From IMG/VR virus record IMGVR_UViG_3300035034_000230, positions 1 to 42,553 of that record: 42,553 nt of DNA; one strand, written 5' to 3'. The stretch is from a virus. The notes beneath the pieces were generated by a model. It searched no databases and was not told the DNA's origin. It worked only from the letters and a program-made list of their open reading frames with translations. Below are positions 14,781 to 42,038 of this stretch, in pieces; within the stretch, counting starts at the first letter, position 1; each line of letters starts with the position of its first letter. The translations under genes were made by a program, and so were the position numbers.

Positions 14781-15143
14781 ATGGCAAGATCAGACAGCAC
14801 AACTGAAACTACAAAAGAGTTAACAAAAGAATTTTTCAACAACTACTTTAATCAACAGATACCTTACAAAGCCAGTGAAGTTGATGCTGTGATAGGTTAT
14901 TTTTTAAAAAGAGGCTTTGAAAGAATAGCGGCTGTGAACACAGCAAGTATTCTACTACAACAGGCCAGCGTTGATCAGATCACAGTGTTTCAATTGATAG
15001 ACACACTCAAAGGTATAAATGACGTACAGCTATCAAACATTGTAGCACAGATCCTCAATCTTAATAGATCAAAAACCAGTACCATAGGCTATAGAGTGCC
15101 ACTGGCTACACAACTGTTTGACCAAAGACAAATAATAGTATAA
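14781..15143 (+). CDS. conserved small structural protein, function unknown
   Basis: A 120-residue, mainly helical protein starting 2 nt after the previous stop and overlapping the gp4 start by one base. It contains AVIGYFLKRGFERIAAVNTA and QITVFQLIDTLKGIND. No enzymatic motif or membrane segment is visible. Position between tail and head-completion genes suggests a late virion or assembly protein; I do not recognise a specific family. Confidence 0.6.
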   Translation: MARSDSTTETTKELTKEFFNNYFNQQIPYKASEVDAVIGYFLKRGFERIAAVNTASILLQQASVDQITVFQLIDTLKGINDVQLSNIVAQILNLNRSKTSTIGYRVPLATQLFDQRQIIV

Positions 15144-15580
15144 TGTCGAGATTCGCACAGGGAAAGTTCAACCTTAAAAATCCTGAAAAGTATGTGGGTA
15201 ACAAAACACCCACATATAGATCAGGTTGGGAATTTCACTTTATGAAATTCTGTGATGAACATACCAGTGTAACACAATGGGCTAGTGAAGCTATACGCAT
15301 CCCATATCGTAATCCTTTTACAGGCAAACAGACTATCTATGTGCCTGACTTTTTTATTGCCTATGCTGACAAAAGCGGCAAATCTCATGTAGAATTAATC
15401 GAAGTTAAACCGTCAAATCAAGCGGTCAAAGAACGTACTGGACGCAGCAAGCACAATCAAGCACATTGGGTACTGAATCAAGCCAAGTGGGAAGCTGCTA
15501 GAGCATGGTGTAAACAGAAAAATATATTCTTTAGAATAGTTACTGAACAGGACCTCTACCATCAGGGACGAAAAAGATAA
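15143..15580 (+). CDS. 4: head completion protein gp4-like
   Basis: Matches T4 gp4 (gp50/65-type head completion), starting SRFAQGKFNLKNPEKYVGN. It has a TnsA/PD-(D/E)XK-like core: YRSGWEFHFMKFCDEH, then IYVPDFFIAY and the Asp…Glu-X-Lys pair in HVELIEVKPSNQ. In T4 gp4 acts late in head maturation before tail joining. The protein has 145 residues, a normal length. A GATAAATA late promoter overlaps its last codon and stop. Confidence 0.85.
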   Translation: MSRFAQGKFNLKNPEKYVGNKTPTYRSGWEFHFMKFCDEHTSVTQWASEAIRIPYRNPFTGKQTIYVPDFFIAYADKSGKSHVELIEVKPSNQAVKERTGRSKHNQAHWVLNQAKWEAARAWCKQKNIFFRIVTEQDLYHQGRKR

Positions 15581-18260: not shown

Positions 18261-18899
18261 ATGTCAAAATCACTAGACGGCGTACTAATTAAAAAAGCCA
18301 ACAAACAAGAAACGTATACAGAACAGCAGATTGCAGACCTACTGGCCTGTATGGATCCTGATGAAGGTTATTTACATTTTGCAAGACAGTTTGCATACAT
18401 CCAACACCCTGTAAAGGGGAAACTGTTGTTTGATCCTTATGAGTATCAACTACGCTTGATGCACAGTTATCACAATTATAGATTCAACATCAACATGATG
18501 CCTAGACAAACAGGTAAGACCACCTGTGCTGCTATCTATCTTGTATGGTATGCTATGTTCCATCCTGATCAGACCATACTAATTGCTGCACACAAATACA
18601 CAGGTGCTCAGGAAATTATGGCTCGTATACGCTATGTGTATGAAACTTGTCCAGATCATATACGTGCTGGTGTTACCAGTTACAATAAAGGCTCAATGGA
18701 ATTTGAAAACGGAAGCCGTATTGTAAGCCAAACAACAACAGGCAACACTGGTCGTGGTATGAGTATTTCACTACTGTATTGTTTAGACGGTGATACTACA
18801 ACTGTTAAGGTTAGAAATAAACAAACTCTTATAGAAGAAGAATTAACATTAGCAGAATTGTACGGTAAACTTACTGGTGCTGCTAGAATAATCACATGA
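18261..18899 (+). CDS. 17: terminase large subunit, fragment 1 (N-extein) + short N-intein
   Basis: Residues 1-173 are the N-terminal ATPase part of gp17. The Walker A-like motif RQTGKTT is at 82-88 and the segment ends SISLLY, the hydrophobic strand of Walker B. At Cys174 the sequence switches to a 39-residue N-intein beginning CLDGDTTTVKV and stops at 18897. The missing Walker B acids (DE) begin the extein of the next fragment at 20136. The product must be joined in trans to the proteins from 19800 and 21565. Joined exteins give 526 residues, compared with 610 in T4 gp17. The stop overlaps the endonuclease start (ATGA). Confidence 0.9.
   Translation: MSKSLDGVLIKKANKQETYTEQQIADLLACMDPDEGYLHFARQFAYIQHPVKGKLLFDPYEYQLRLMHSYHNYRFNINMMPRQTGKTTCAAIYLVWYAMFHPDQTILIAAHKYTGAQEIMARIRYVYETCPDHIRAGVTSYNKGSMEFENGSRIVSQTTTGNTGRGMSISLLYCLDGDTTTVKVRNKQTLIEEELTLAELYGKLTGAARIIT
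18780..18896 (+). other. split intein 1 (TerL-a), N-half
   Basis: 39 codons. Contains only intein block A (CLDGDT) and a short LAELYGKL helix. The block B His lies in the C-half, so the split is atypical, like AceL-TerL. Confidence 0.85.
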
Positions 18900-19825
18900 C
18901 AAGTTTGCATTTGTATAAATACTGTATGAACAAAAAAATAGAACAGTTTAAAAAACGTAATCGCAAACGTAATGCACATCTCTATCAGGTCAATAAATCG
19001 GAGGGAATTGACTACATAGTATGTCCGGTTTCGCAAGAACGAGTTTCGATGATTAAATCGTCGTACATTGAACGGGTATTAAGTATGACTGTAGACGTAT
19101 ATGATGCGTTGTATCCGGGTGTTAGAGGTGTCAGTGAAACAAGAAAGAAGAATATTAAAAAAGGTTTACAGCAAGTAGACCCTGTAACAGGAAAAACTAA
19201 GTACGAGATAAGTCAAGAAAAATCTAGAAAAGTATTATTGGAAACTGACGAAAACGGCGTTTCCGGATATAAAAGAAAAGGCGAAAAGACTCGTGCAACA
19301 CATATGAAAAATATCGATGAGTTTGGCCGAAATGGTTATTCACAGCTTGCCTCGAAAGCCATTGTAAAAGGTAACACAACAAAGGCAAAAAAGGGACTAA
19401 TATTAGAGCCTAGTTTCCGCAACGAATATTACAGATATAAATCTGTTGTTTTATATGTTACAGAACAGTTTAGAGCCGAAATAACAACAGGCTATAAAAC
19501 TGGATTAGCTGGAACATTAGGTGCATATCATATTGATCATATGTTTTCGATAATAAACGGATACAAGAATCAAGTTAGTCCGCTACTTATAGGAAGTAAA
19601 TATAACTTAAAAATGATTCCTTGGAAGGATAATTTGTCAAAACATAGCTCTAGCAGTATTTCTTTTAATGAGCTACTGACTATCTCAAAATATAATGAGA
19701 AGCGATCTAGACAAGAATACTTTTATTTTTTAAATCTAATTGAGTTAGATTTAAAAAATAAAACACCTGTTTCCGGCGCCCATTTAATGGAAAGATTTTA
19801 TGAATCAAAACTATATACCAAATAA
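18896..19825 (+). CDS. HNH-type homing endonuclease of intein 1
   Basis: A free-standing gene between the two halves of intein 1. The C-terminal part has HNH-like residues in AYHIDHMFSIINGYKN and KYNLKMIPWKDNLSKH (His-Ile-Asp-His, Asn, Asn, Lys-His). The middle is Lys-rich with DEFGRNGYSQLASKA, probably DNA-binding. ATG 18896 overlaps the N-intein stop; a second ATG at 18926 lies 4 nt after a TATAAATA late promoter and would give 299 residues from a separate late message. The 3' end overlaps the C-intein gene by 26 nt. Confidence 0.75.
   Translation: MTSLHLYKYCMNKKIEQFKKRNRKRNAHLYQVNKSEGIDYIVCPVSQERVSMIKSSYIERVLSMTVDVYDALYPGVRGVSETRKKNIKKGLQQVDPVTGKTKYEISQEKSRKVLLETDENGVSGYKRKGEKTRATHMKNIDEFGRNGYSQLASKAIVKGNTTKAKKGLILEPSFRNEYYRYKSVVLYVTEQFRAEITTGYKTGLAGTLGAYHIDHMFSIINGYKNQVSPLLIGSKYNLKMIPWKDNLSKHSSSSISFNELLTISKYNEKRSRQEYFYFLNLIELDLKNKTPVSGAHLMERFYESKLYTK
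18914..18921 (+). promoter_or_regulatory. late promoter inside the intein-1 endonuclease start region
   Basis: Perfect TATAAATA followed by CTGT and ATG 18926. If used, the message starts at or beside that ATG. Confidence 0.65.
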
Positions 19826-20135
19826 TGAATACGAAATACTAACACCTAACGGGTGGGAAGATTTTGAAGGAGTAATATTTAACGAAAATGCAAATAAGCA
19901 TTCACGTAAAATTTATTTTGATGACAACAGCTTTGTAACAGCAACTAACGATCATAGATTTTTTTCTAATAAAAAAGAGATAAAAGTAGTTGACTTAAAT
20001 GTAGGAGATGTATTAGATTCCTATAATACTGTTAAAAAAATAATCAAACTTGAAGATTTAGTATTAGAGCATACATATGAAATTTTTAATGCCGAGAATC
20101 ATGTAATAATAGCAAACCAAATTAACTCACATCAA
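19800..20135 (+). other. split intein 1 (TerL-a), C-half
   Basis: 112 codons, containing block B (TATNDH) and blocks F/G. The last residue is Gln (SHQ|C) instead of the usual Asn. The +1 extein residue is Cys. Confidence 0.85.
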
Positions 20136-20537
20136 TGTGACGAATTTGCGTTCGTACAACCAAACATTGCTGAAGAATTCTGGACATCAATATCACCTAC
20201 ACTAGCAACAGGTGGTAGAGCTATTATTACTTCAACGCCCAACAGTGACGAAGATACTTTTGCTACTATTTGGAAGCAGGCTGAAAATAAGTTTGATGAA
20301 TACGGAAACGAATCAGAACTAGGTGTAAACGGGTTCCATGCGTTTAGAGCCAGTTGGGATGAGCACCCTGACAGAGATGAAAAATGGAAATCAGATGAAG
20401 TTGGACGTATCGGCGAAGAAAAATTCCGCAGAGAATACGGGTGTGTGACACGCAATACTATGATAACTTTGCAAGACGAATTTGGAAAAGAATTTGAAAT
20501 CACAATCGGTGAGTTATTTAATATGCTAGATAAATAA
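19800..20537 (+). CDS. 17: terminase large subunit, fragment 2: C-intein 1 + middle extein + N-intein 2
   Basis: Three parts are visible. Residues 1-112 are the C-half of intein 1, with YEILTPNGWEDFEGV, the block B motif TATNDH and the ending VIIANQINSHQ before Cys113. Residues 113-214 are the middle gp17 extein: CDEFAFVQPNIAEEF completes Walker B, and AIITSTPNS is the following coupling-type motif. Residues 215-245 are a second N-intein (CVTRNTMITLQD … LFNMLDK) ending in a stop. Both ends must splice in trans. The start has GGAAAG 5 nt upstream and lies inside the end of the endonuclease gene. Confidence 0.9.
   Translation: MNQNYIPNNEYEILTPNGWEDFEGVIFNENANKHSRKIYFDDNSFVTATNDHRFFSNKKEIKVVDLNVGDVLDSYNTVKKIIKLEDLVLEHTYEIFNAENHVIIANQINSHQCDEFAFVQPNIAEEFWTSISPTLATGGRAIITSTPNSDEDTFATIWKQAENKFDEYGNESELGVNGFHAFRASWDEHPDRDEKWKSDEVGRIGEEKFRREYGCVTRNTMITLQDEFGKEFEITIGELFNMLDK
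20442..20534 (+). other. split intein 2 (TerL-b), N-half
   Basis: 31 codons, starting at Cys after the extein sequence RREYG; block A reads CVTRNT. Another atypically short N-half. Confidence 0.85.
20529..20536 (+). promoter_or_regulatory. late promoter overlapping the intein-2 N-half stop
   Basis: GATAAATA encodes the final Asp-Lys and the start of the stop codon. It lies 31 nt before a GTG (20568) preceded by GGAGA. Confidence 0.6.
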
Positions 20538-20642
20538 TTGCACAACATTAATTTAGCGGAGAATACTGTGAGTGCAACATACATATTGTCAAAAATCGAC
20601 AACAATTAATATTGCAAAACAAATGGACAATTTACACGTCAT

Positions 20643-21581
20643 TTGAGAAAGTATGAGTTAACTTATCAAGATTATTATGAAACATATGTAACAAACACTA
20701 GCCCCAGATGTGCTTGCGGCCAAAGATTGGCATTTTATCAAAAAACTGAATCTTATGCAAACAGTTGCGGCTCGCCCGAATGCAGAGGCAAAAACATATC
20801 TAATACAAAACAAAACTGGACGACAACACAGCGTCAACAAGATCGACTAAACAAACAACGTGCAGCAGCCAATCGCACAGACGAGCAAAAAACACAGCAG
20901 GTTAAAAAAGCAAGACAAACCTTTAATGAAAAATACGGAGTTGACTGGGGGTCTACCCTTGATAGTCAAAAAACGAAATCAAAAAAAACTAAACTTGAAA
21001 AGTACGACAACGAAAAGTATAACAACAGTCGGCAGGCTAGTCTAAGTAGAATCAGTCGGTCTGTTGACCAAAAGAATAAAAGTAACGCACAACGAAGAAA
21101 AACTAACTTGGAAAGATACGGAGTTGAAAACGTATTGTTGACAAAATCAACTCCTAATAAGGTTAACAAAGGCAACAGATCTATTAAGGAATATACATTG
21201 CCAAGCGGAACAACTATTGGAGTTAGAGGACACGAACCATTTGCATTGGATATACTATTTGGAGAAATGAATTATCAAGAACACGAAGTTGTAGTACACG
21301 ACGACTATTCAACCTATGCTATAGAAATATTTGAATACATGAACACAAACATGCATAATACAAAATATTATCCAGACATATACATCTCTAAAGAACACAG
21401 AATTATCGAAGTAAAAAGCCAATGGTGGTGGGATGGATACGGGGCAGAAAAGTATAGTTCAAGATTGTTGAATAATCTCAAAAAACGACAAGTAGTGATA
21501 GATAAAGGATATAACTATGAAGTATGGATATTTGAAAATAAATACACTTATAAGGTATTAAAAGATGACGCAGATTTTTAA
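20643..21581 (+). CDS. PD-(D/E)XK homing endonuclease of intein 2, N terminus probably damaged
   Basis: From TTG 20643 the frame encodes 312 residues. KYELTYQDYYETY and CACGQR…CGSPEC look like a zinc-binding N-terminal module. The middle is Lys/Gln-rich, and the C-terminal domain has YYPDIYISKEHRIIEVKSQ, a PD-(D/E)XK signature. The frame continues upstream through CKTNGQFTRHLR to a TAA at 20607; before that, still in frame, lies GTG 20568 with GGAGA 5 nt upstream. The original start was therefore probably 20568, with a stop now separating it from the rest. The 3' end overlaps the next C-intein gene by 17 nt. Confidence 0.65.
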   Translation: MRKYELTYQDYYETYVTNTSPRCACGQRLAFYQKTESYANSCGSPECRGKNISNTKQNWTTTQRQQDRLNKQRAAANRTDEQKTQQVKKARQTFNEKYGVDWGSTLDSQKTKSKKTKLEKYDNEKYNNSRQASLSRISRSVDQKNKSNAQRRKTNLERYGVENVLLTKSTPNKVNKGNRSIKEYTLPSGTTIGVRGHEPFALDILFGEMNYQEHEVVVHDDYSTYAIEIFEYMNTNMHNTKYYPDIYISKEHRIIEVKSQWWWDGYGAEKYSSRLLNNLKKRQVVIDKGYNYEVWIFENKYTYKVLKDDADF

Positions 21582-21906
21582 AGAAAACGTATCAAACTAT
21601 AAAGTGTTAACACCAAGTGGATTTCAAGATTTTGCCGGTGTAGCAATGATGGGAATACAACCGTTGTTAAGAATGGAGTTTGAAAGAGGCGCGGTTGTTG
21701 AATGCACATATGATCACAAATTTTATACAACACTAGAACACCACAAAGAAGCATGTGAAATAGAGATAGGCGATACAGTAATTACTACCGAAGGCAATAT
21801 AGCACTAATTAATAAAGTTGAACTAGGATATAGCGAACCTGTTTACGATCTAATAGAAGTAGCAAATGGACACAAATATTTTACAAATCGTATATTAAGT
21901 TCGAAC
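21565..21906 (+). other. split intein 2 (TerL-b), C-half
   Basis: 114 codons, ending ILSSN|C: terminal Asn, penultimate Ser, +1 Cys. Block B His is in TYDH. Confidence 0.85.
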
Positions 21907-22662
21907 TGCGAATTCCTGGTATTTGACGAAACGCTGATCAGCAGTCTTAAATTAGCTGTAATGGAAGGTGCTATTCCACAGATCAACATGGGGCAAACTC
22001 GTTGGTATAAAAAGCCAACCAGCCAGTATACCTATTGTGTAGCACTGGACCCTAGTATGGGCACCGGCGGCGACCATGCTGCTATACAGGTATTTGAATT
22101 GCCCTCATATGAACAGGTGGCTGAATGGCAACACAACACCACAGCTATCCCTGGCCAGATCAGAGTTATGGCAGATATCTGTAAATATATCGCAGACGAA
22201 ACCGGCAACCCTAACGGAATTTATTGGAGCGTGGAGAACAATGGTATAGGCGAGGCCGCCCTGATTGTTATAAACGACTTTAGCGAAGAAAACATTCCAG
22301 GATTGTTTATCAGTGAGCCCATACGCAAAGGACATGTTCGTAAATTCCGTAAAGGATTTAATACTACACACAGTTCGAAAATCACTGCCTGTAGTCGACT
22401 AAAGACCATGATAGAAAATGATAAGATGTTGATACGTTCAAAGCCTCTTATATCAGAACTCAAAGGATATGTAGCAACAGGCAGCAGCTTCCAAGCCAAA
22501 ACGGGCATGGGCGATGACTTAGTAAGTGCTACACTATTGATCTTAAGAATGATGACAGTATTAAAAGATTGGGACCCAAGAGTCTACAACACGTTTACAC
22601 AGGCTGATCATGATGACAATTATGAGCCGCCCATGCCAATCTTTATAAGCACAGGATATTAA
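21565..22662 (+). CDS. 17: terminase large subunit, fragment 3: C-intein 2 + C-terminal extein
   Basis: Residues 1-114 are the C-half of intein 2 (YKVLTPSGFQDFAGV, then ECTYDH as block B, ending FTNRILSSN). Cys115 starts the C-terminal 251 residues of gp17. CEFLVFDETLISS resumes the extein interrupted after RREYG, and the RNase H-fold nuclease motifs follow: CVALDPSMGTGGDHAA, YWSVENNGIGEA and GMGDDLVSATLL. This domain cuts packaged DNA. The stop overlaps the late promoter of the next gene. Confidence 0.9.
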   Translation: MTQIFKENVSNYKVLTPSGFQDFAGVAMMGIQPLLRMEFERGAVVECTYDHKFYTTLEHHKEACEIEIGDTVITTEGNIALINKVELGYSEPVYDLIEVANGHKYFTNRILSSNCEFLVFDETLISSLKLAVMEGAIPQINMGQTRWYKKPTSQYTYCVALDPSMGTGGDHAAIQVFELPSYEQVAEWQHNTTAIPGQIRVMADICKYIADETGNPNGIYWSVENNGIGEAALIVINDFSEENIPGLFISEPIRKGHVRKFRKGFNTTHSSKITACSRLKTMIENDKMLIRSKPLISELKGYVATGSSFQAKTGMGDDLVSATLLILRMMTVLKDWDPRVYNTFTQADHDDNYEPPMPIFISTGY

Positions 22663-36439: not shown

Positions 36440-37657
36440 ATGCAGAAAATAGGCGTACACACAGTAGAAGATTGTTTAGAGATCCTTACAGGGCTCCAGA
36501 AGCATGATCTTGAATTTACAATAGAAACCAGCGATCGCAGCTTGATCCAAAGCATTGCTAGGCAAGTATTTCGAGGCACTGCGCTGACAGATCGTCAGTA
36601 CAGTCTTATGAAAGAAAAACTAGACAAATATAAAATTCAGTTTGAGAGTCAAGACATCATTGGTGTTGAACGTGCAGTTAGCAAACTGCGCAATCCTCTG
36701 AGAGAAATTGATCGCAGCAAATATATCACTGTTGTAGAACATCTAGAAGGTATTCCTTATCCTGCAGATGAACGCTGTAGATACATTAAAATTAGATTTC
36801 CTTTTAAAAAATCTGATATAGCACTGATTGATCAAATCAACAGCACCAAAGATTATCATCACAAAAAAGGTAGTCACGAACACTATTTTGTTTACAACGA
36901 ACATAATGTTTACAATCTGCTTTCTCGATTCAAAGACAAAAGCTATAAAATCGATCAAGAATTGGTTGACTTATTTGAAAAGATTCTAGACATTCGCAGT
37001 CGAGAACAGGACTACGTTCCGGGCATCTATAACAACGAACTGAAAAATATTCACCCTAGCGCAAAGGCAATTGCTGAAAGTGAAGTTGGCGCATTCGATG
37101 CTGACACTGTGTTGTTTTATGTGGACAGAAAATTTAGATACGGCATAGTAAACGTTGACCACAATGATGCTTCGTCTGTAATTGAAAAGATTGCCTATAG
37201 AAATGATGTAACCTATCAAAGTAAACCCAGTGAAGAATCACTGTCAGATATCTTATTGGCACTTCAAAATCTAAAAAGATTTCCTCTATTGGTTGTGCTG
37301 GAAAAGTCTCATGCTGAAAATCAGCTGTATGAGATGGCGAACTTTTATCGAGACATTTTACCCAATGAAGAACAGAGTGTGCTGTTTAGACAAGATGGCG
37401 ACAGCGGATTTAATCAGTTGGTTAAAGACCGCAGGCTAAACAATTGGGTTGACAGCAATACTAAAATAGTATACATTAGTAGTGACAAGTTACCTAAGCT
37501 GTTGATCAGTGGCGAATGGCAACCCTGTGTAACTTTTGGTTACACCAGCAGATTAGATCGAACCGTTGACTCTTACATACACAATAGATGTGATCTCATA
37601 GTGTATCGAGAGGATATGATAAGCCCCATGCGGAGATACTCACAATACTATGGCTAG
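36440..37657 (+). CDS. conserved protein of unknown function upstream of uvsW
   Basis: A 405-residue protein transcribed with uvsW; its end overlaps the uvsW start by 8 nt. Residues 1-75 are helical. Residues 100-170 (RCRYIKIRFPFKKSDIALID … HEHYFVYNEHNVYNLLSRF) resemble in pattern the short HARP-type domains found next to SNF2 helicases, but this is a weak resemblance. The C-terminal half is alpha/beta (FPLLVVLEKSH; TKIVYISSDKLPKLLISGEW) without Walker motifs and might be a degenerate helicase-like fold. Function is not assigned; an accessory role to UvsW is possible from the context. Confidence 0.5.
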   Translation: MQKIGVHTVEDCLEILTGLQKHDLEFTIETSDRSLIQSIARQVFRGTALTDRQYSLMKEKLDKYKIQFESQDIIGVERAVSKLRNPLREIDRSKYITVVEHLEGIPYPADERCRYIKIRFPFKKSDIALIDQINSTKDYHHKKGSHEHYFVYNEHNVYNLLSRFKDKSYKIDQELVDLFEKILDIRSREQDYVPGIYNNELKNIHPSAKAIAESEVGAFDADTVLFYVDRKFRYGIVNVDHNDASSVIEKIAYRNDVTYQSKPSEESLSDILLALQNLKRFPLLVVLEKSHAENQLYEMANFYRDILPNEEQSVLFRQDGDSGFNQLVKDRRLNNWVDSNTKIVYISSDKLPKLLISGEWQPCVTFGYTSRLDRTVDSYIHNRCDLIVYREDMISPMRRYSQYYG

Positions 37658-39311
37658 TTGTAAATTAATTATTGAAGATGAAGTTAACATTAAATTCGAA
37701 GGACTAGACGTAGACATCAGACGCAAACTGACCAACGCTCTCAAGTTTGAAGTACCTTATGCTAAACACATGCCTCAGTATAAGCTGGGACGCTGGGACG
37801 GCAAGGTTGCGTTCTTTGGTATCGGCGGTTCGGGCTATGTGAATCATCTTGATGTTATTGTTGACATCCTAACAAAAAACAAAGTAAACATTGTTGACAT
37901 AGATGATCGTAGACACCCTATACAGATCAACTTCGCTCCAGTTACTGAACGCTATTGGGCTGATCAAGATATACGCTGGCCCAAAGGACACCCAGATGCG
38001 GGCGAACTTATTATGCTTCGTGATTATCAAGTTGAAGCAATCAACAACTTCCTAGCCCATCCACAAAGCCTACAACAGATTGCTACTGGCGCAGGCAAAT
38101 GTCGAACTTATGATTCTACAATGGATATAGATGTAGGTAATTCTGATTTTGCTGAATATTTGCTAAATAAAGTAAGAAATAGCAACTGGAGCAATTCTAT
38201 GAACGTAGCAACTTTTTGTAAAACATATCAGCGAAAAATGTGGAAGTCGATGATTACTAGGAAAAAATTAGATTTCACCTTATTGGATGTAATAACGTTC
38301 AACAATGAGCAACTTTATTACATACCGTATAATGGATATCATAAATTTACAGTAAGTACTTCACAATGCTTAAAGTGTAATGCAGCGCTAGTTATCGGAT
38401 TTAGAAAAGATGAGTTTATAGTATCAACATGCAAATGTTCAGCAGATAACAAGAATTATGCTACTTTAGAAAAGTTATCAACTGTATTTCCTGTAAGTGA
38501 AGCAAATGACGTATTATCATCATTTGCAGAGCGAAAAACACGGAATTTACAAAATGTACTAACTCATTGGACATCGCGTGGACATACTCACGAGGACGCA
38601 GTACAATTAGTGTCAGACGTACAAGCGAGTCGATCGTCACTGTCACCTGCTGCACAGAAAGGTGCACGGGGGTATTCGATGAGAACCCCCGAATACTGGA
38701 TTAAGCAAGGGTATTCTAAATCAGACGCTGTGCAGAAAGTAAGTAATCTTCAAGTTACAAACGGCTTAGAGTTTTATGTTAACAGATATGGCACTGATGA
38801 AGGCAAAGTACAGTACGATAAGCGAATGACAGAATGGTTAACATCATACACTCGTGCTATGGAACTAGATCCTACAATTAATGAAAGAAAAATGGTCGGG
38901 TTTTGCAAAGCATCAAAAGAGTCGTTAAACGTGTTAATGCCAGTCTATGAAAAGTATAACGATAAAATTCGTATATACTTAGGCATTGACGGAAATACTG
39001 AATATTTTTTGCGCGACGACGATAGTATACGATTTTATGATTTTACGATACCCGAGCTTAAAATAATTGTTGAGTTTCATGGATCTAAGTTCCATGCTAA
39101 TGCAGAGTTATTATCTGAGCAACAACTGTTAGAATGGAAGAGCTTATTTTCAAATGAATCAGCAGACTTGGTTATTGCAAAGGATACTGTAAAGCGAAAA
39201 ATAGCAGAATGTCACGGATACACATTGTTAACAATTTGGGATACTGACGACGTTGACCAAGCAATTACTAAAATTACAAATTTAATAGAAGAAAAACTTA
39301 ATGAAATTTAA
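37650..39311 (+). CDS. uvsW: UvsW fragment 1 (N-extein) + N-intein 3 fused to a Vsr-like homing endonuclease
   Basis: Residues 1-150 are the N-terminal part of UvsW helicase (DNA-binding domain, Q-motif-like LRDYQVEAINNFLAH) ending in the Walker A sequence QQIATGAGK. Cys151 begins an intein N-half (CRTYDSTMDIDVG), and the frame continues without a stop into an endonuclease. That part has a zinc-ribbon-like CLKC…CKC, two repeats of the form GYSKSDAVQKVSNLQ, and a C-terminal Vsr/EDxHD-like core at about 460-545 (FYDFTIPELKIIVEFHGSKF; HGYTLLTIWDTDD). The protein has 553 residues. Trans-splicing would release the extein from a large intein-endonuclease polypeptide. Confidence 0.88.
   Translation: MASCKLIIEDEVNIKFEGLDVDIRRKLTNALKFEVPYAKHMPQYKLGRWDGKVAFFGIGGSGYVNHLDVIVDILTKNKVNIVDIDDRRHPIQINFAPVTERYWADQDIRWPKGHPDAGELIMLRDYQVEAINNFLAHPQSLQQIATGAGKCRTYDSTMDIDVGNSDFAEYLLNKVRNSNWSNSMNVATFCKTYQRKMWKSMITRKKLDFTLLDVITFNNEQLYYIPYNGYHKFTVSTSQCLKCNAALVIGFRKDEFIVSTCKCSADNKNYATLEKLSTVFPVSEANDVLSSFAERKTRNLQNVLTHWTSRGHTHEDAVQLVSDVQASRSSLSPAAQKGARGYSMRTPEYWIKQGYSKSDAVQKVSNLQVTNGLEFYVNRYGTDEGKVQYDKRMTEWLTSYTRAMELDPTINERKMVGFCKASKESLNVLMPVYEKYNDKIRIYLGIDGNTEYFLRDDDSIRFYDFTIPELKIIVEFHGSKFHANAELLSEQQLLEWKSLFSNESADLVIAKDTVKRKIAECHGYTLLTIWDTDDVDQAITKITNLIEEKLNEI
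38100..38180 (+). other. split intein 3 (UvsW-a), N-half
   Basis: Starts at Cys151, directly after the Walker A Lys. Block A reads CRTYDSTMDI. The downstream boundary with the fused endonuclease is uncertain; about 25-30 residues are intein-like. Confidence 0.75.
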
Positions 39312-39705
39312 CATACCAATAGGGGAACTAGCAGAGTCGATTGCGGAGTACAAAGGAGTACTATTAAACGATAACTGCGAAATTAATATTAAAGATCTTG
39401 ATTGTAAAGTTAATACACCATCAGGAACTGCTACTATTAATATTATAATTAAAAAAGAAAAGTTAGAAGGCATAAAACTATTACTTGCAAATGGTGTAGA
39501 AATAAAGTGTGCTAATAAGCATATATTAAGATATAATAATGCAGACGTATTTGCAGATTCATTAGCAATTGGCGACTCGGTAGAAACTATTAACGGGAAT
39601 GTTAAGGTTAGTAGTATTAACAATATTGACGATACTACATTTTACGATATCGGAATAGATGCACCGTACTTATATTATGATGCAGACGGAGTATTACATC
39701 ATAAT
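39301..39705 (+). other. split intein 3 (UvsW-a), C-half
   Basis: 135 codons; ends LHHN|T, the canonical His-Asn with Thr as +1 residue. Contains the block B-like ANKH. Confidence 0.85.
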
Positions 39706-40287
39706 ACAATTACCACAGCAACACTTTCACACATAAGCGAGCCTCATGGTCGTAGTCTAGTTATTGTTCCAAACAAATCACTTGTTGAACAGACTGAAGA
39801 AGACTACATCAACTGTGGGCTCGACGTAGGGGTGTATTTCGGAGACAGAAAGCAACTGGGTAAGACTCACACTATCTGTACTTGGCAAAGTCTAAACATT
39901 CTAGACAAAAGGCACAAGGACGGAGCAGCCGTACTATCACTGGCTGAATTTTTAGATGAGGTACGTACAATTATTGTCGACGAATGTTTTGCAGGCGACA
40001 CTCTTATCACAACACCAAGTGGTCAAGTGCCTATTAAAGATTTAAAGGCAGGCGACAAAGTAATTAATCTATGTGAAAAAACAAAACAATACAAAGAAGA
40101 TACCGTAGTTAAAGTTCATAAAAACTTAACACATAGTCAAAGTGAAAAAATGCTAGAGATAGAGTTTGACAACGGTATAAAAACTAAAGTTACTGCTAAC
40201 CATAAATTTTTAACAGACAATGGCTGGGTTAGGGCAGATCAGTTAACTGAAGATTTAGAAATTATTAACATAAATACATATAGCTAA
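39301..40287 (+). CDS. uvsW: UvsW fragment 2: C-intein 3 + middle extein + N-intein 4
   Basis: Residues 1-135 are the C-half of intein 3 (FNIPIGELAESIAEYKGV, block B region CANKHILRY, end DADGVLHHN). Thr136 completes the Walker A Lys-Thr, and residues 136-228 are helicase motifs Ia-II (SLVIVPNKSLVEQTEEDY; TICTWQSL; TIIVDE). Cys229 starts a second intein N-half of 100 residues (CFAGDTLITTPSGQ … TANHKFLTDNGW), ending at the stop. The start overlaps the previous gene by 11 nt. Confidence 0.9.
   Translation: MKFNIPIGELAESIAEYKGVLLNDNCEINIKDLDCKVNTPSGTATINIIIKKEKLEGIKLLLANGVEIKCANKHILRYNNADVFADSLAIGDSVETINGNVKVSSINNIDDTTFYDIGIDAPYLYYDADGVLHHNTITTATLSHISEPHGRSLVIVPNKSLVEQTEEDYINCGLDVGVYFGDRKQLGKTHTICTWQSLNILDKRHKDGAAVLSLAEFLDEVRTIIVDECFAGDTLITTPSGQVPIKDLKAGDKVINLCEKTKQYKEDTVVKVHKNLTHSQSEKMLEIEFDNGIKTKVTANHKFLTDNGWVRADQLTEDLEIININTYS
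39985..40284 (+). other. split intein 4 (UvsW-b), N-half
   Basis: 100 codons with block A (CFAGDT) and block B (TANH). This is the conventional split position, unlike inteins 1-3. It begins inside the helicase DECH motif (VDE|C). Confidence 0.88.
40269..40276 (+). promoter_or_regulatory. late promoter before the intein-4 endonuclease
   Basis: CATAAATA at the end of the N-intein gene, followed by AAGGAGA and ATG 40301. Confidence 0.55.
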
Positions 40288-40300
40288 AGGAGAAGTATTT

Positions 40301-41212
40301 ATGGCAAAACAATTTGATATAGAAAAGTTTAATAAAATTTTAAAAATAAATCATCAAAAACTGCAAGCAGAAAAAATAACTGGTAAAAAAGTTATCCTAT
40401 CAAATGGATTAATCCTTGAGACTGAGAAGGACGTTCGTCTTTGTAAGAACAGAGTGATGTCAGGAGATAATGTTTGGAAAGAAAATTTCGACATACTTTA
40501 CAGTATTAATAGTGATGAAAGAGAATTGGCCGAAAAAAAGTGTAGATCCTTGACTTCTGTGCAAGGCGGAATTAAATGCCAAGAAAAGCATGGAAAAAAA
40601 ATTAAATCTAACCTAAACACAGGAACGCCATGGAATAAAGATATGAAGGGAAATTATCCTTATTCTTATTCGCATTCTCCTGAAACAAAAGAAAAGATAA
40701 GTGTTGCTAATACTGGTGCAAAAAACGGCATGTACGGAACAATGATGACCGCAGAACAAAAAGAATACAGAAGTAACTTAATGAAAGAAAAAATTCTTTC
40801 AGGAGAGTTTACGCCAAATTCTAATAATAGAAATACTCATTGGAATTCTTATTATAGAAATAAAAAATACAGAAGCAGTTGGGAATCACTTTATCAATAT
40901 TTCGATCCTGATGCCGAGTATGAAACTTTAAGAATACCTTATGTGTTTGAATGCAAAGAACATATTTACATAGTAGATTTTGTTAATCATAAAACTAAAA
41001 CTGCAATTGAAGTAAAACCTAGAGAACTCTTTAATGACCAAAAAACACAAACTAAAATATCTACAGCCGAAGAGTGGTGCAATGCTAATGGATATAATTT
41101 AGTATTAGCAGATAAAGAATATTTTATAACTCGGCCAATGCCTGATGATTTGACCGAATTTGATACTAAAACACAAAATAAAATTAGGAAACTTTATGAA
41201 GTTAATCAGTAA
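40301..41212 (+). CDS. homing endonuclease of intein 4 with NUMOD3 and TnsA-like PD-(D/E)XK domains
   Basis: A 303-residue protein between the halves of intein 4, with AAGGAGA before its ATG. The middle has NUMOD3-like DNA-binding segments (HSPETKEKISVANTGAKNG; MTAEQKEYRSNLMKEKI). The C-terminal domain reads YRSSWESLYQYFDPDAEYE, RIPYVFE, IYIVDFVNHKTKTAIEVKP and EEWCNANGYNLVL. That order (Glu, Asp, Glu-X-Lys) is a PD-(D/E)XK nuclease core of the TnsA type and closely parallels the phage's own gp4 (15143). The 3' end overlaps the C-intein start by 17 nt. Confidence 0.82.
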   Translation: MAKQFDIEKFNKILKINHQKLQAEKITGKKVILSNGLILETEKDVRLCKNRVMSGDNVWKENFDILYSINSDERELAEKKCRSLTSVQGGIKCQEKHGKKIKSNLNTGTPWNKDMKGNYPYSYSHSPETKEKISVANTGAKNGMYGTMMTAEQKEYRSNLMKEKILSGEFTPNSNNRNTHWNSYYRNKKYRSSWESLYQYFDPDAEYETLRIPYVFECKEHIYIVDFVNHKTKTAIEVKPRELFNDQKTQTKISTAEEWCNANGYNLVLADKEYFITRPMPDDLTEFDTKTQNKIRKLYEVNQ

Positions 41213-41300
41213 AAAAGAAATCGAAAAGCCACATGAAACTTATAACCTTCATGTAGAAACAGACCATAACTATATTGCAAATGATGTTGTAGTTTCAAAC
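41196..41300 (+). other. split intein 4 (UvsW-b), C-half
   Basis: 35 codons; block F DHNYIAND and end VVSN|C. The usual penultimate His is Ser. Size matches conventional C-inteins such as those of DnaE. Confidence 0.88.
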
Positions 41301-42038
41301 TGCCACATGGCAAAAGCAGAGGTGCTTAAGAACCTACTGACTCGCAACCTACGCAATGCTCCTATTCGCTGGGGACTGACTGGCACAGTGCCCAAAGAGC
41401 CGTTTGAGTTTGAATCAATTCATGCTAGCCTTGGCCCTGTGATTGGACAGATCAGTGCTAAGGAACTACAGGACAAAGGTGTGTTGGCACAGTGTCACGT
41501 TAATGTGGTACAGTTGATTGACACAGTAGCACACAGAGGCTATCAAGAAGAATTAAAGTATCTTGTTACAAATCAAGATAGAATAGAATACCTAGGCAAA
41601 TTATTAAACACAATCAAAGAATCAGGCAACACACTAATACTGGTAGACAGAATTACAGCAGGCGAAGAACTACAAAAACTTATACCCAACAGCACATTTA
41701 TCAGCGGTTCGGTTAAGGTAAAGGATAGAAAAGAAACATACGACACGATTAGAGAAGGTACTAACGAAGTTATCATTGCGACCTATGGAGTTGCCGCTGT
41801 GGGTCTTAACATTCCTCGTATCTTTAATCTTGTTCTTCTCGAGCCTGGAAAAAGTTTTGTTAGAGTTATTCAGAGTATTGGTAGAGGCGTAAGAAAGGCA
41901 AAGGACAAAGACTTCGTACAAATATGGGACTTGACATCAACATGCAAGTATGCGAAGCGGCACCTTACCGAAAGAAAGAAATTTTATTCTGAGGCGCAGT
42001 ACCCATTCACAATTGAAAAAGTGGATTGGAAAAAATAA
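41196..42038 (+). CDS. uvsW: UvsW fragment 3: C-intein 4 + C-terminal helicase extein
   Basis: Residues 1-35 are the C-half of intein 4 (HETYNLHVETDHNYIANDVV, ending VSN). Cys36 restores the DECH motif (VDE+CHMAKA), followed by 245 residues of UvsW: WGLTGTVPKEPFE (motif III), a second RecA-like domain with NTLILVDRITAGEEL, IIATYGVAAVGLNIP (motif V) and QSIGRGVRKAKDKD (motif VI). UvsW unwinds recombination intermediates and R-loops in T4. Joined exteins give 488 residues (T4: about 500). ATG 41196 with AGGAAA 5 nt upstream is preferred to ATG 41160. Confidence 0.9.
   Translation: MKLISKKEIEKPHETYNLHVETDHNYIANDVVVSNCHMAKAEVLKNLLTRNLRNAPIRWGLTGTVPKEPFEFESIHASLGPVIGQISAKELQDKGVLAQCHVNVVQLIDTVAHRGYQEELKYLVTNQDRIEYLGKLLNTIKESGNTLILVDRITAGEELQKLIPNSTFISGSVKVKDRKETYDTIREGTNEVIIATYGVAAVGLNIPRIFNLVLLEPGKSFVRVIQSIGRGVRKAKDKDFVQIWDLTSTCKYAKRHLTERKKFYSEAQYPFTIEKVDWKK

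What the first reader, a model, noticed from the sequence alone, without database searches (positions are those of the whole stretch)
40301..41212. Intein-4 endonuclease carries a nuclease domain like the phage's head-completion protein gp4
Order and spacing of motifs (YRSSWE / YRSGWE; RIPY; IYIVDF / IYVPDF; AIEVKP / LIEVKP) are shared with gp4 at 15143-15580. The endonuclease may have been assembled from a NUMOD3 DNA-binding region and a gp4/TnsA-type nuclease, possibly captured from a structural gene, or both derive from the same ancestral fold.
Basis: partly seen in the sequence, partly recalled or inferred. Interest (0 to 1): 0.55.

Follow-up and report, generated by a model that had tools for sequence, protein, structure and literature searches.

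The report
Intein endonuclease with swappable cutting domain
A phage selfish gene sitting inside a split self-splicing insert carries a DNA-cutting domain that is a true cousin of the phage's own head-completion protein gp4, and relatives in other phages sit at the same spot of different ATPase genes and appear to have swapped this cutting domain with one another.

Summary
ORF 40301-41212 (303 aa) carries NUMOD3 and, C-terminally, the same Pfam domain (PF08722) as gp4 at 15143-15580; these are the only two PF08722 matches in the window. Both predicted structures match TnsA best. Capture from this phage's gp4 is rejected (AU p 1e-73); a shared older ancestor fits.

The gene lies between the halves of a split intein at uvsW's Walker B motif, DE|C. 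All 51 related IMG/VR loci (E<=1e-9) show at least one intein half; the N junction is DE|C in 45 of 47 visible, in UvsW-like helicase, clamp loader and terminase; a phage isolate adds PhoH. Intein-less marine uvsW alleles have Val where intein alleles have Cys (73 against 6).

The endonuclease's N-terminal module follows the host gene, while the nuclease has been exchanged between genes at a conserved linker. Cleavage, homing and trans-splicing are inferred. Verdict: new variant of a known kind; interest 0.6.

The parts
37650..38099 (+). uvsW N-extein 1 (ends ..ATGAGK at Walker A)
   Evidence: junction computed
39706..39984 (+). uvsW middle extein (between the two split inteins), ends ..IIVDE at Walker B
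39985..40284 (+). N-terminal half (100 aa) of the second uvsW split intein, begins CFAGDTLITTP; Pfam Intein_splicing/Hint
40285..40292 (+). TAAAGGAG: stop codon of the upstream ORF overlapping a Shine-Dalgarno-like sequence for the endonuclease ORF
   Evidence: read; function inferred
40301..41212 (+). endonuclease ORF, 303 aa, between the two intein halves
40667..40744 (+). NUMOD3 motif (residues 123-148)
   Evidence: 26.4 bits
40790..40840 (+). conserved linker KILSGEFTPNSNNRNTH (residues 164-180), where module exchange is seen in relatives; partly alignable with the gp4 N-terminus
40868..41170 (+). gp4/TnsA-type PD-(D/E)XK nuclease domain (residues 190-290); conserved E195, E208, D226, E237, K239
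   Evidence: catalytic role by analogy
41186..41189 (+). AGGA upstream of the C-half start codon
   Evidence: read; function inferred
41196..41300 (+). C-terminal half (35 aa) of the split intein, MKLISKKEIEK..VVVSN
   Evidence: (Intein_splicing E 0.005)
41301..42038 (+). uvsW C-extein, begins CHMAKAEV (+1 Cys), helicase C domain, with stop codon
15143..15580 (+). gp4 head-completion protein, 145 aa, the homologous nuclease domain compared

Best explanation
The ORF is a homing endonuclease gene that splits an intein at the Walker B motif (DE|C) of the phage helicase gene uvsW. Its C-terminal domain is a PD-(D/E)XK nuclease of the gp4/TnsA/T7-endonuclease-I kind, closest among those compared to the phage gp4 family and sharing an ancestor with it, but not taken from this phage's gp4. 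Proposed working: the protein is made from its own ribosome-binding site; the N-terminal module (NUMOD3 here, cysteine-rich CxxC modules in clamp-loader versions) binds extein DNA around the Walker B codons of an intein-less uvsW in a mixed infection; the nuclease cuts there; repair from the intein-bearing copy inserts intein plus endonuclease gene and converts the +1 codon from Val to Cys; the two intein halves then trans-splice to restore UvsW. Across phages the N-terminal module stays with the host gene while the nuclease is exchanged between endonucleases of different ATPase genes at a conserved linker. Shown here: gene order, split-intein anatomy, domain homology, predicted fold, empty and filled alleles, +1 residue difference, a contiguous endonuclease-free form of the intein, tree and module discordance. 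Inferred: DNA cutting, its site, homing, trans-splicing, the sense of exchange.
For: Homology. Fold: AF2 models pLDDT 81 and 87; TnsA is top PDB match of both (Foldseek; VIA Z 8.4 over 135 residues, rmsd 5.2, and Z 9.2 over 124, rmsd 4.6). Split intein. Consistent setting: of 51 IMG/VR relatives with E<=1e-9, N junction visible in 47 (45 DE|C; 2 terminases VDEAxxIE|C or VDEIxxIE|C), C junction N|C visible in 49, at least one half in 51 of 51. Mobility: of the 80 best uvsW relatives, 73 uninterrupted with DE-V-H, 6 with intein and C-H, 1 cut off; L295 carries the same intein contiguous without the endonuclease. Module exchange: four clamp-loader endonucleases (L309, L020, L327, L346) have N-intein halves 56% identical to six other clamp-loader ones and 25% to uvsW ones, but nuclease 36% and 55% (nuclease means without L346); among the 14 best hits listed for each of their N-terminal modules all are clamp-loader ones (L327 to L351 E 4e-43) except one helicase row, L345, for L020; identity flips at the linker (pooled 0.43 same gene/0.17 other gene just upstream, 0.54/0.84 at it, 0.27/0.55 downstream); one clade of clamp-loader nucleases rejected, AU p 4e-5.
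Against: No cutting, homing or splicing was measured. The clades tested were chosen after seeing the tree. The nuclease domain is about 120 columns; several rows are long branches, and leaving out five rows lowers the host changes from 10 to 7 (minimum 3). VIA Z near 8 is within the range that the tool says models without a clear match can reach, though TnsA stands about 3 above the next rows. The two models were not superposed on each other. Residues 110-150 of the endonuclease model, with NUMOD3, are low confidence. In Salmonella phage S16 and Proteus phage PM2 the presumed catalytic Lys is Arg, so some members may be inactive.
Confidence: 0.8

Rival explanations
1. Capture: an ancestral endonuclease took its nuclease from a phage gp4 gene, which later evolved in the mobile gene.
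For: gp4 is the closest of the named families compared (gp4 E 1.5e-17, T7 endonuclease I 3e-8, Tn7 TnsA 0.016); the linker also partly aligns with the gp4 N-terminus; endonucleases plus gp4 as one clade is not rejected (p 0.24).
Against: Endonucleases do not fall inside the sampled gp4s; joining them to either gp4 half weakly rejected (p 0.018, 0.033) and to the window gp4 strongly. Free-standing relatives (SP-15, Moonbeam, IME341, CkP1) show that the domain also lives outside gp4. The root is not known.
Confidence: 0.2
2. Only fold convergence or very remote kinship within the PD-(D/E)XK superfamily: the resemblance to gp4 is no closer than to any other nuclease.
For: The four motifs occur in the same order in T7 endonuclease I; PF08722 is a broad family.
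Against: Score 117.7 against a shuffle maximum of 22.7, and 53.1 with the four motifs masked; gp4 matches far better than T7 endonuclease I or TnsA; similarity runs on through the C-terminal K..AA..WC..NG....TE segment.
Confidence: 0.04
3. The ORF is a domesticated or dead relic that no longer homes and only happens to sit in the split intein.
For: No activity data; the presumed catalytic Lys is Arg in S16 and PM2 relatives; the Campylobacter phage CP21 copy is broken into two frames.
Against: Window ORF is intact with E195, D226, E237, K239 kept; patchy presence at the uvsW site; 51 of 51 relatives keep the intein setting.
Confidence: 0.15
4. Whole intein cassettes (both halves plus endonuclease) jump between ATPase genes, rather than nuclease modules being exchanged.
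For: All sit at the same DE|C codons (GAY GAR TGY) in different genes.
Against: N-intein halves sort by host gene (4 changes, minimum 3, 47 rows) while nucleases do not (10 changes, 56 rows), and N-terminal endonuclease modules follow the gene.
Confidence: 0.12

Closest known systems
Fractured genes: split inteins with a free-standing homing endonuclease between the halves (Dassa et al. 2009; not held, known from recall and as a citation; phage MIJ3 PolB with an HNH endonuclease, passages read)
   Same: Host gene broken into ORFs, an intein half on each side, endonuclease ORF in the gap.
   Different: Nuclease is of the gp4/TnsA kind, not HNH (MIJ3) nor, as recalled, the Vsr-like family of Dassa; insertion nearly always at Walker B DE|C.
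T4 gp4 head-completion protein (phrog_218); predicted PD-(D/E)XK nuclease by Kosinski et al. 2005, PMC1189080 (passages read)
   Same: Homologous nuclease domain, same element order, same best PDB match.
   Different: Endonuclease has an extra N-terminal module and a C-terminal tail, lies in an intein, and forms a separate clade.
TnsA endonuclease subunit of Tn7 (PDB 1t0f, 1f1z)
   Same: Pfam PF08722 above cut-off and best structural match.
   Different: No TnsA C-terminal domain among Pfam hits; sequence profile of Tn7 TnsA itself is barely similar (E 0.016).
T7 endonuclease I (PF05367)
   Same: Same motif order; weaker profile match E 3e-8.
   Different: PF05367 below cut-off (17.4 of 29.1 bits); diverges after the EVK motif.
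Campylobacter phage IBB_35 inteins and Hef-like genes (PMC3322345, passages read)
   Same: Reports phoH interrupted by inteins and two adjacent Hef-like endonuclease genes; CP21 and CP20 relatives found here lie in a phoH-like gene at DE|C.
   Different: The passages read do not name the gp4/TnsA nuclease or the site; LIMEstone F-LimIII, called Hef there, is Vsr/DUF7487-type and not this family.

Membership tests
PF08722 TnsA-like endonuclease N-terminal domain | Score above Pfam's curated cut-off (26.5 bits) | tested here: met
   31.5 bits on the protein, 35.3 bits on the genome
Tn7 TnsA transposase subunit | C-terminal TnsA domain | tested here: not met
   no TnsA C-terminal family at E<=1
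Tn7 TnsA transposase subunit | TnsB/TnsC partner genes | not tested
   not searched for in the window
gp4 head-completion family (phrog_218) | falls within the gp4 clade and best matches phrog_218 | tested here: not met
   phrog_218 E 7.9e-7 but phrog_22417 E 1.4e-44 and phrog_15427 E 7.4e-28; separate clade, AU tests
T7 endonuclease I (PF05367) | score above cut-off 29.1 bits | tested here: not met
   17.4 bits
Split-intein homing endonuclease (fractured gene) | intein N half in the upstream ORF, C half in the downstream ORF, endonuclease ORF between | tested here: met
Split-intein homing endonuclease (fractured gene) | empty alleles of the same gene at the exact site | tested here: met
   73 of 80 uvsW relatives uninterrupted, 6 with intein, 1 cut off
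Split-intein homing endonuclease (fractured gene) | the halves trans-splice and the enzyme cuts the empty site | not testable with these tools
   needs bench work
NUMOD3-bearing endonuclease | NUMOD3 above cut-off 20.4 bits | tested here: met
   26.4 bits, residues 123-148; of eight relatives scanned, above it in L319 and L332, below it in L328, no hit in L012, L309, L351, L343, L345
Vsr / EDxHD-type homing endonuclease | Vsr-like fold and sequence | tested here: inconclusive
   no Vsr Pfam hit; VIA Z 5.4 to Vsr 1cw0 and 5.3 to I-Bth0305I 3r3p, against 8.4 to TnsA

The most novel reading that the evidence does not exclude
A guild of split inteins at the Walker B codons of different phage ATPases (UvsW helicase, clamp loader, terminase, PhoH) shares one swappable gp4-type cutting cartridge. 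Each endonuclease keeps a gene-specific N-terminal module for finding its gene, while the nuclease, exchanged between endonucleases at the FTPNSNNR linker, cuts at or near the only DNA these genes have in common, GAY-GAR-TGY (Asp-Glu-Cys), and homing installs the +1 Cys that splicing needs in alleles that had Val. This would explain why one nuclease lineage keeps meeting the same motif in unrelated genes.
Probability: 0.35. Interest if true: 0.78.

Novelty: new variant of a known kind. Interest (0 to 1): 0.6.

Why it matters
Homing endonucleases are usually grouped by nuclease type and thought to retarget by slow drift of binding residues (general knowledge, recalled). Here natural sequences appear to record a different route: the target-finding part stays with its gene and the cutting part is replaced, at a fixed joint. 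It also links a virion protein whose nuclease activity is only predicted (gp4) to a family whose DNA cutting can be assayed, and gives a ready set of natural split inteins at one conserved ATPase motif. The homology also misleads annotation: in Campylobacter phage CP21 a piece of such an endonuclease is labelled head closure.

Tried and rejected
Capture from the window's own gp4: rejected. Hef: F-LimIII of LIMEstone1, called Hef in PMC3296691, was fetched and is DUF7487/Vsr-like, not this family; the original Hef of phage U5 was not obtained. PDB by sequence gave nothing useful for either protein. NCBIfam has no family for the endonuclease. phiXF1 (L035), the weakest of the 49 phage hits, shows no intein and was left out of the profiles and trees. 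The 16 weakest loci (L355-L370) look mostly like gp4 itself by length and neighbours and were not counted as endonucleases; L357, L361 and L365 among them are longer and were not followed up. VIA absence of other folds was not used as evidence.

Rows dropped before counts: L066 (truncated gp4) from gp4 profiles; some T7-type rows without the search pattern or by choice from the tree; L330 (phage TG1 by its length, near-copy of L026) from the host tree, then 67 rows reduced to 56 below 90% identity; seven short terminase N-halves from the intein tree; five long or gappy rows; three endonucleases fused to their N half. Several IMG/VR contigs recur, so these sets overlap.

Literature: searches in an open-licence library; no paper on a gp4/TnsA-type homing endonuclease was seen in those listings, which is not proof of absence. 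Papers were seen as passages only: PMC3322345, PMC10448857, PMC3296691, PMC2988022, PMC1189080, PMC5050341, PMC6892783; PMC3229294 only a reference-list passage. Dassa 2009 and Sandegren 2005 are not held; what is said of them is recall or citation.

Full report
What was checked. The window is a 42,553-base virus record. Pfam assigns NUMOD3 (26.4 bits) and PF08722 TnsA-like N (31.5 bits) to the endonuclease and PF08722 (80.2 bits) to gp4; a whole-record search finds PF08722 in exactly these two places. PHROGs places the endonuclease in phrog_22417 (E 1.4e-44) and phrog_15427 'endonuclease' (7.4e-28), with gp4's phrog_218 'head closure' at 7.9e-7; gp4 in turn matches phrog_15427 at 4.3e-9. Direct BLASTP: E 1e-5.

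Strength of the resemblance. A profile of 18 endonucleases against a profile of 20 gp4s gives probability 98.9, E 1.5e-17 over 110 columns; against T7 endonuclease I 3e-8, against Tn7 TnsA 0.016; gp4 against T7 endonuclease I 9e-6 and against TnsA 1e-4. With 100 column shuffles of the gp4 profile the best score was 22.7 against 117.7; with the four motifs masked the real score was still 53.1 against a shuffle maximum of 19.7. The match includes a linker upstream of YRSSWE (GEFTPNSNNR in the endonucleases, GKF..KNP.KY.G in gp4) and the segment K..AA..WC..NG....TED after EVKP. The motif order by itself is shared with T7 endonuclease I, so the motifs alone would not have singled out gp4.

Fold. 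AlphaFold2 gave mean pLDDT 81.2 (pTM 0.51) for the endonuclease and 86.6 (pTM 0.76) for gp4, from shallow alignments of 8 and 10 sequences. Element order in the nuclease part agrees: helix, strands, EVKP strand, long helix, strand, short helix. Both have Tn7 TnsA as best PDB match: Foldseek E 0.027 and 3.3e-5, VIA Z 8.4 (135 residues, 5.2 A) and 9.2 (124 residues, 4.6 A). The Z values are modest, but TnsA stands about 3 above the next rows. The best BFVD matches of the endonuclease are phage proteins named NUMOD3 or TnsA N-terminal domain, among them those of CP20 and PspYZU05, and an unnamed protein of PM2. That gp4 is a PD-(D/E)XK protein of TnsA/T7-endonuclease-I type was predicted in 2005 (PMC1189080, passages).

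Ancestry. On 121 columns the 18 endonuclease domains form one clade (97/95); the 20 gp4s form another, weakly (62/86). Window endonuclease (with its near relative L011) plus window gp4 is rejected (p 1.4e-73); endonucleases with the marine gp4s p 0.018; with the named gp4s p 0.033; endonucleases with all gp4s not rejected, p 0.24. So the two share an ancestor, the endonuclease was not copied from this phage's gp4, and the direction of an older exchange is open.

Setting. The ORF before it ends with 100 aa of intein N half starting at DE|C (39985); the ORF after it starts with a 35-aa C half ending VVVSN|C (41301). The endonuclease has TAAAGGAG just upstream of its ATG, and the C half has AGGA inside the endonuclease's 3' end. 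So uvsW is interrupted at its Walker B motif by a split intein with a free-standing endonuclease gene, the fractured-gene arrangement.

Relatives in isolates. tblastn finds 49 phage records. Of 14 fetched, 13 show the intein N half at the host-gene junction: uvsW in S16 and PM2; terminase in phiR1-RT, PspYZU05, SG1, Thanatos-2, JK32 and kaaroe (in the last three the endonuclease is fused to the N half); a PhoH-like gene in Campylobacter CP20, WX1 and CP21 (endonuclease frameshifted in CP21); a clamp-loader-like gene in LR756500; a helicase-like gene in Lak-B2. phiXF1 does not.

Relatives in IMG/VR. A nuclease-domain alignment found 67 loci. The 51 with E<=1e-9 all lie beside intein halves: N junction visible in 47 (45 DE|C, 2 terminases with VDE four residues further upstream and IE|C at the junction), lost at a contig end in 4; C junction N|C visible in 49, lost in 2; at least one in 51 of 51 (nine N junctions missed by the script's pattern were settled: five read there, four cut off). 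Host genes were called from the first C-extein residues and spot-checked by Pfam in ten stretches from eight loci: AAA in three clamp-loader N pieces, UvsW_N and helicase families in two helicase pieces, Terminase_6C in one terminase, PhoH in one; the other three stretches gave no informative host family. The 16 weaker loci are mostly gp4 genes.

Mobility marks. Among the 80 best relatives of the uvsW C-extein, 73 are uninterrupted and read DE-V-H, 6 carry the intein and read C-H, 1 is cut off: the residue needed for splicing is present only with the intein. Of the 6, four have the endonuclease, one (L295) has the same intein in one piece without endonuclease, one is cut off. The split form therefore differs from the whole form by the endonuclease gene in the gap.

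Module exchange. Among 56 nucleases below 90% identity (35 helicase, 12 clamp loader, 8 terminase, 1 PhoH) the host gene changes at least 10 times on the tree, minimum 3, shuffled mean 19.4; without five long or gappy rows 7 times. Intein N halves (47 rows) need 4 changes. Four clamp-loader loci (L309, L020, L327, L346) make the point: their N-intein halves are 56% identical to other clamp-loader ones and 25% to uvsW ones, their nucleases 36% and 55%; their N-terminal modules match clamp-loader modules; identity changes sides at the linker. Clamp-loader nucleases as one clade: p 4e-5; the group was picked after seeing the tree. Joined sites from different genes share GAY GAR TGY and little else by eye.

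Mechanism and limits. Conserved E195, E208, D226, E237, K239 fit a PD-(D/E)XK active site by analogy. In S16 and PM2 the Lys is Arg. Cutting, cut site, homing and splicing were not and could not be tested here.

Noticed in passing
window 37650-39311 and 39301-40287: uvsW carries another split intein at Walker A (GAGK|C at 38100, HHN|T at 39706) whose N half is fused to a different, phrog_22677 endonuclease-like region; uvsW is thus in three ORFs.
   Followed up: partly
window 18261-22662: The terminase large subunit is also in three extein pieces with intein halves and two further endonuclease-like ORFs: 18896-19825 (phrog_5104) and 20643-21581 (DUF7487, phrog_3339 homing endonuclease). So the window seems to hold four split inteins with four different endonuclease types.
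   Followed up: partly
L295:1370-2560: Contiguous, endonuclease-free form of the same Walker B intein in uvsW.
   Followed up: partly
L024 and L025 (Proteus phage PM2, Salmonella phage S16): EIRP instead of EVKP/EIKP: presumed catalytic Lys replaced by Arg in both.
   Followed up: no
L028, Campylobacter phage CP21 phoH region: Endonuclease broken into two frames; the RefSeq record labels one piece head closure, apparently an annotation error that follows from the gp4 homology.
   Followed up: no
L309:3542-4000: The clamp-loader C-extein appears to contain another intein splicing domain.
   Followed up: no
L127 Bacillus phage Moonbeam, L126 IME341, L129 CkP1, L128 SP-15: Free-standing relatives of the nuclease domain outside inteins, near phoH, tRNA genes or terminase; possible bridges between gp4, T7 endonuclease I and the intein endonucleases.
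   Followed up: partly
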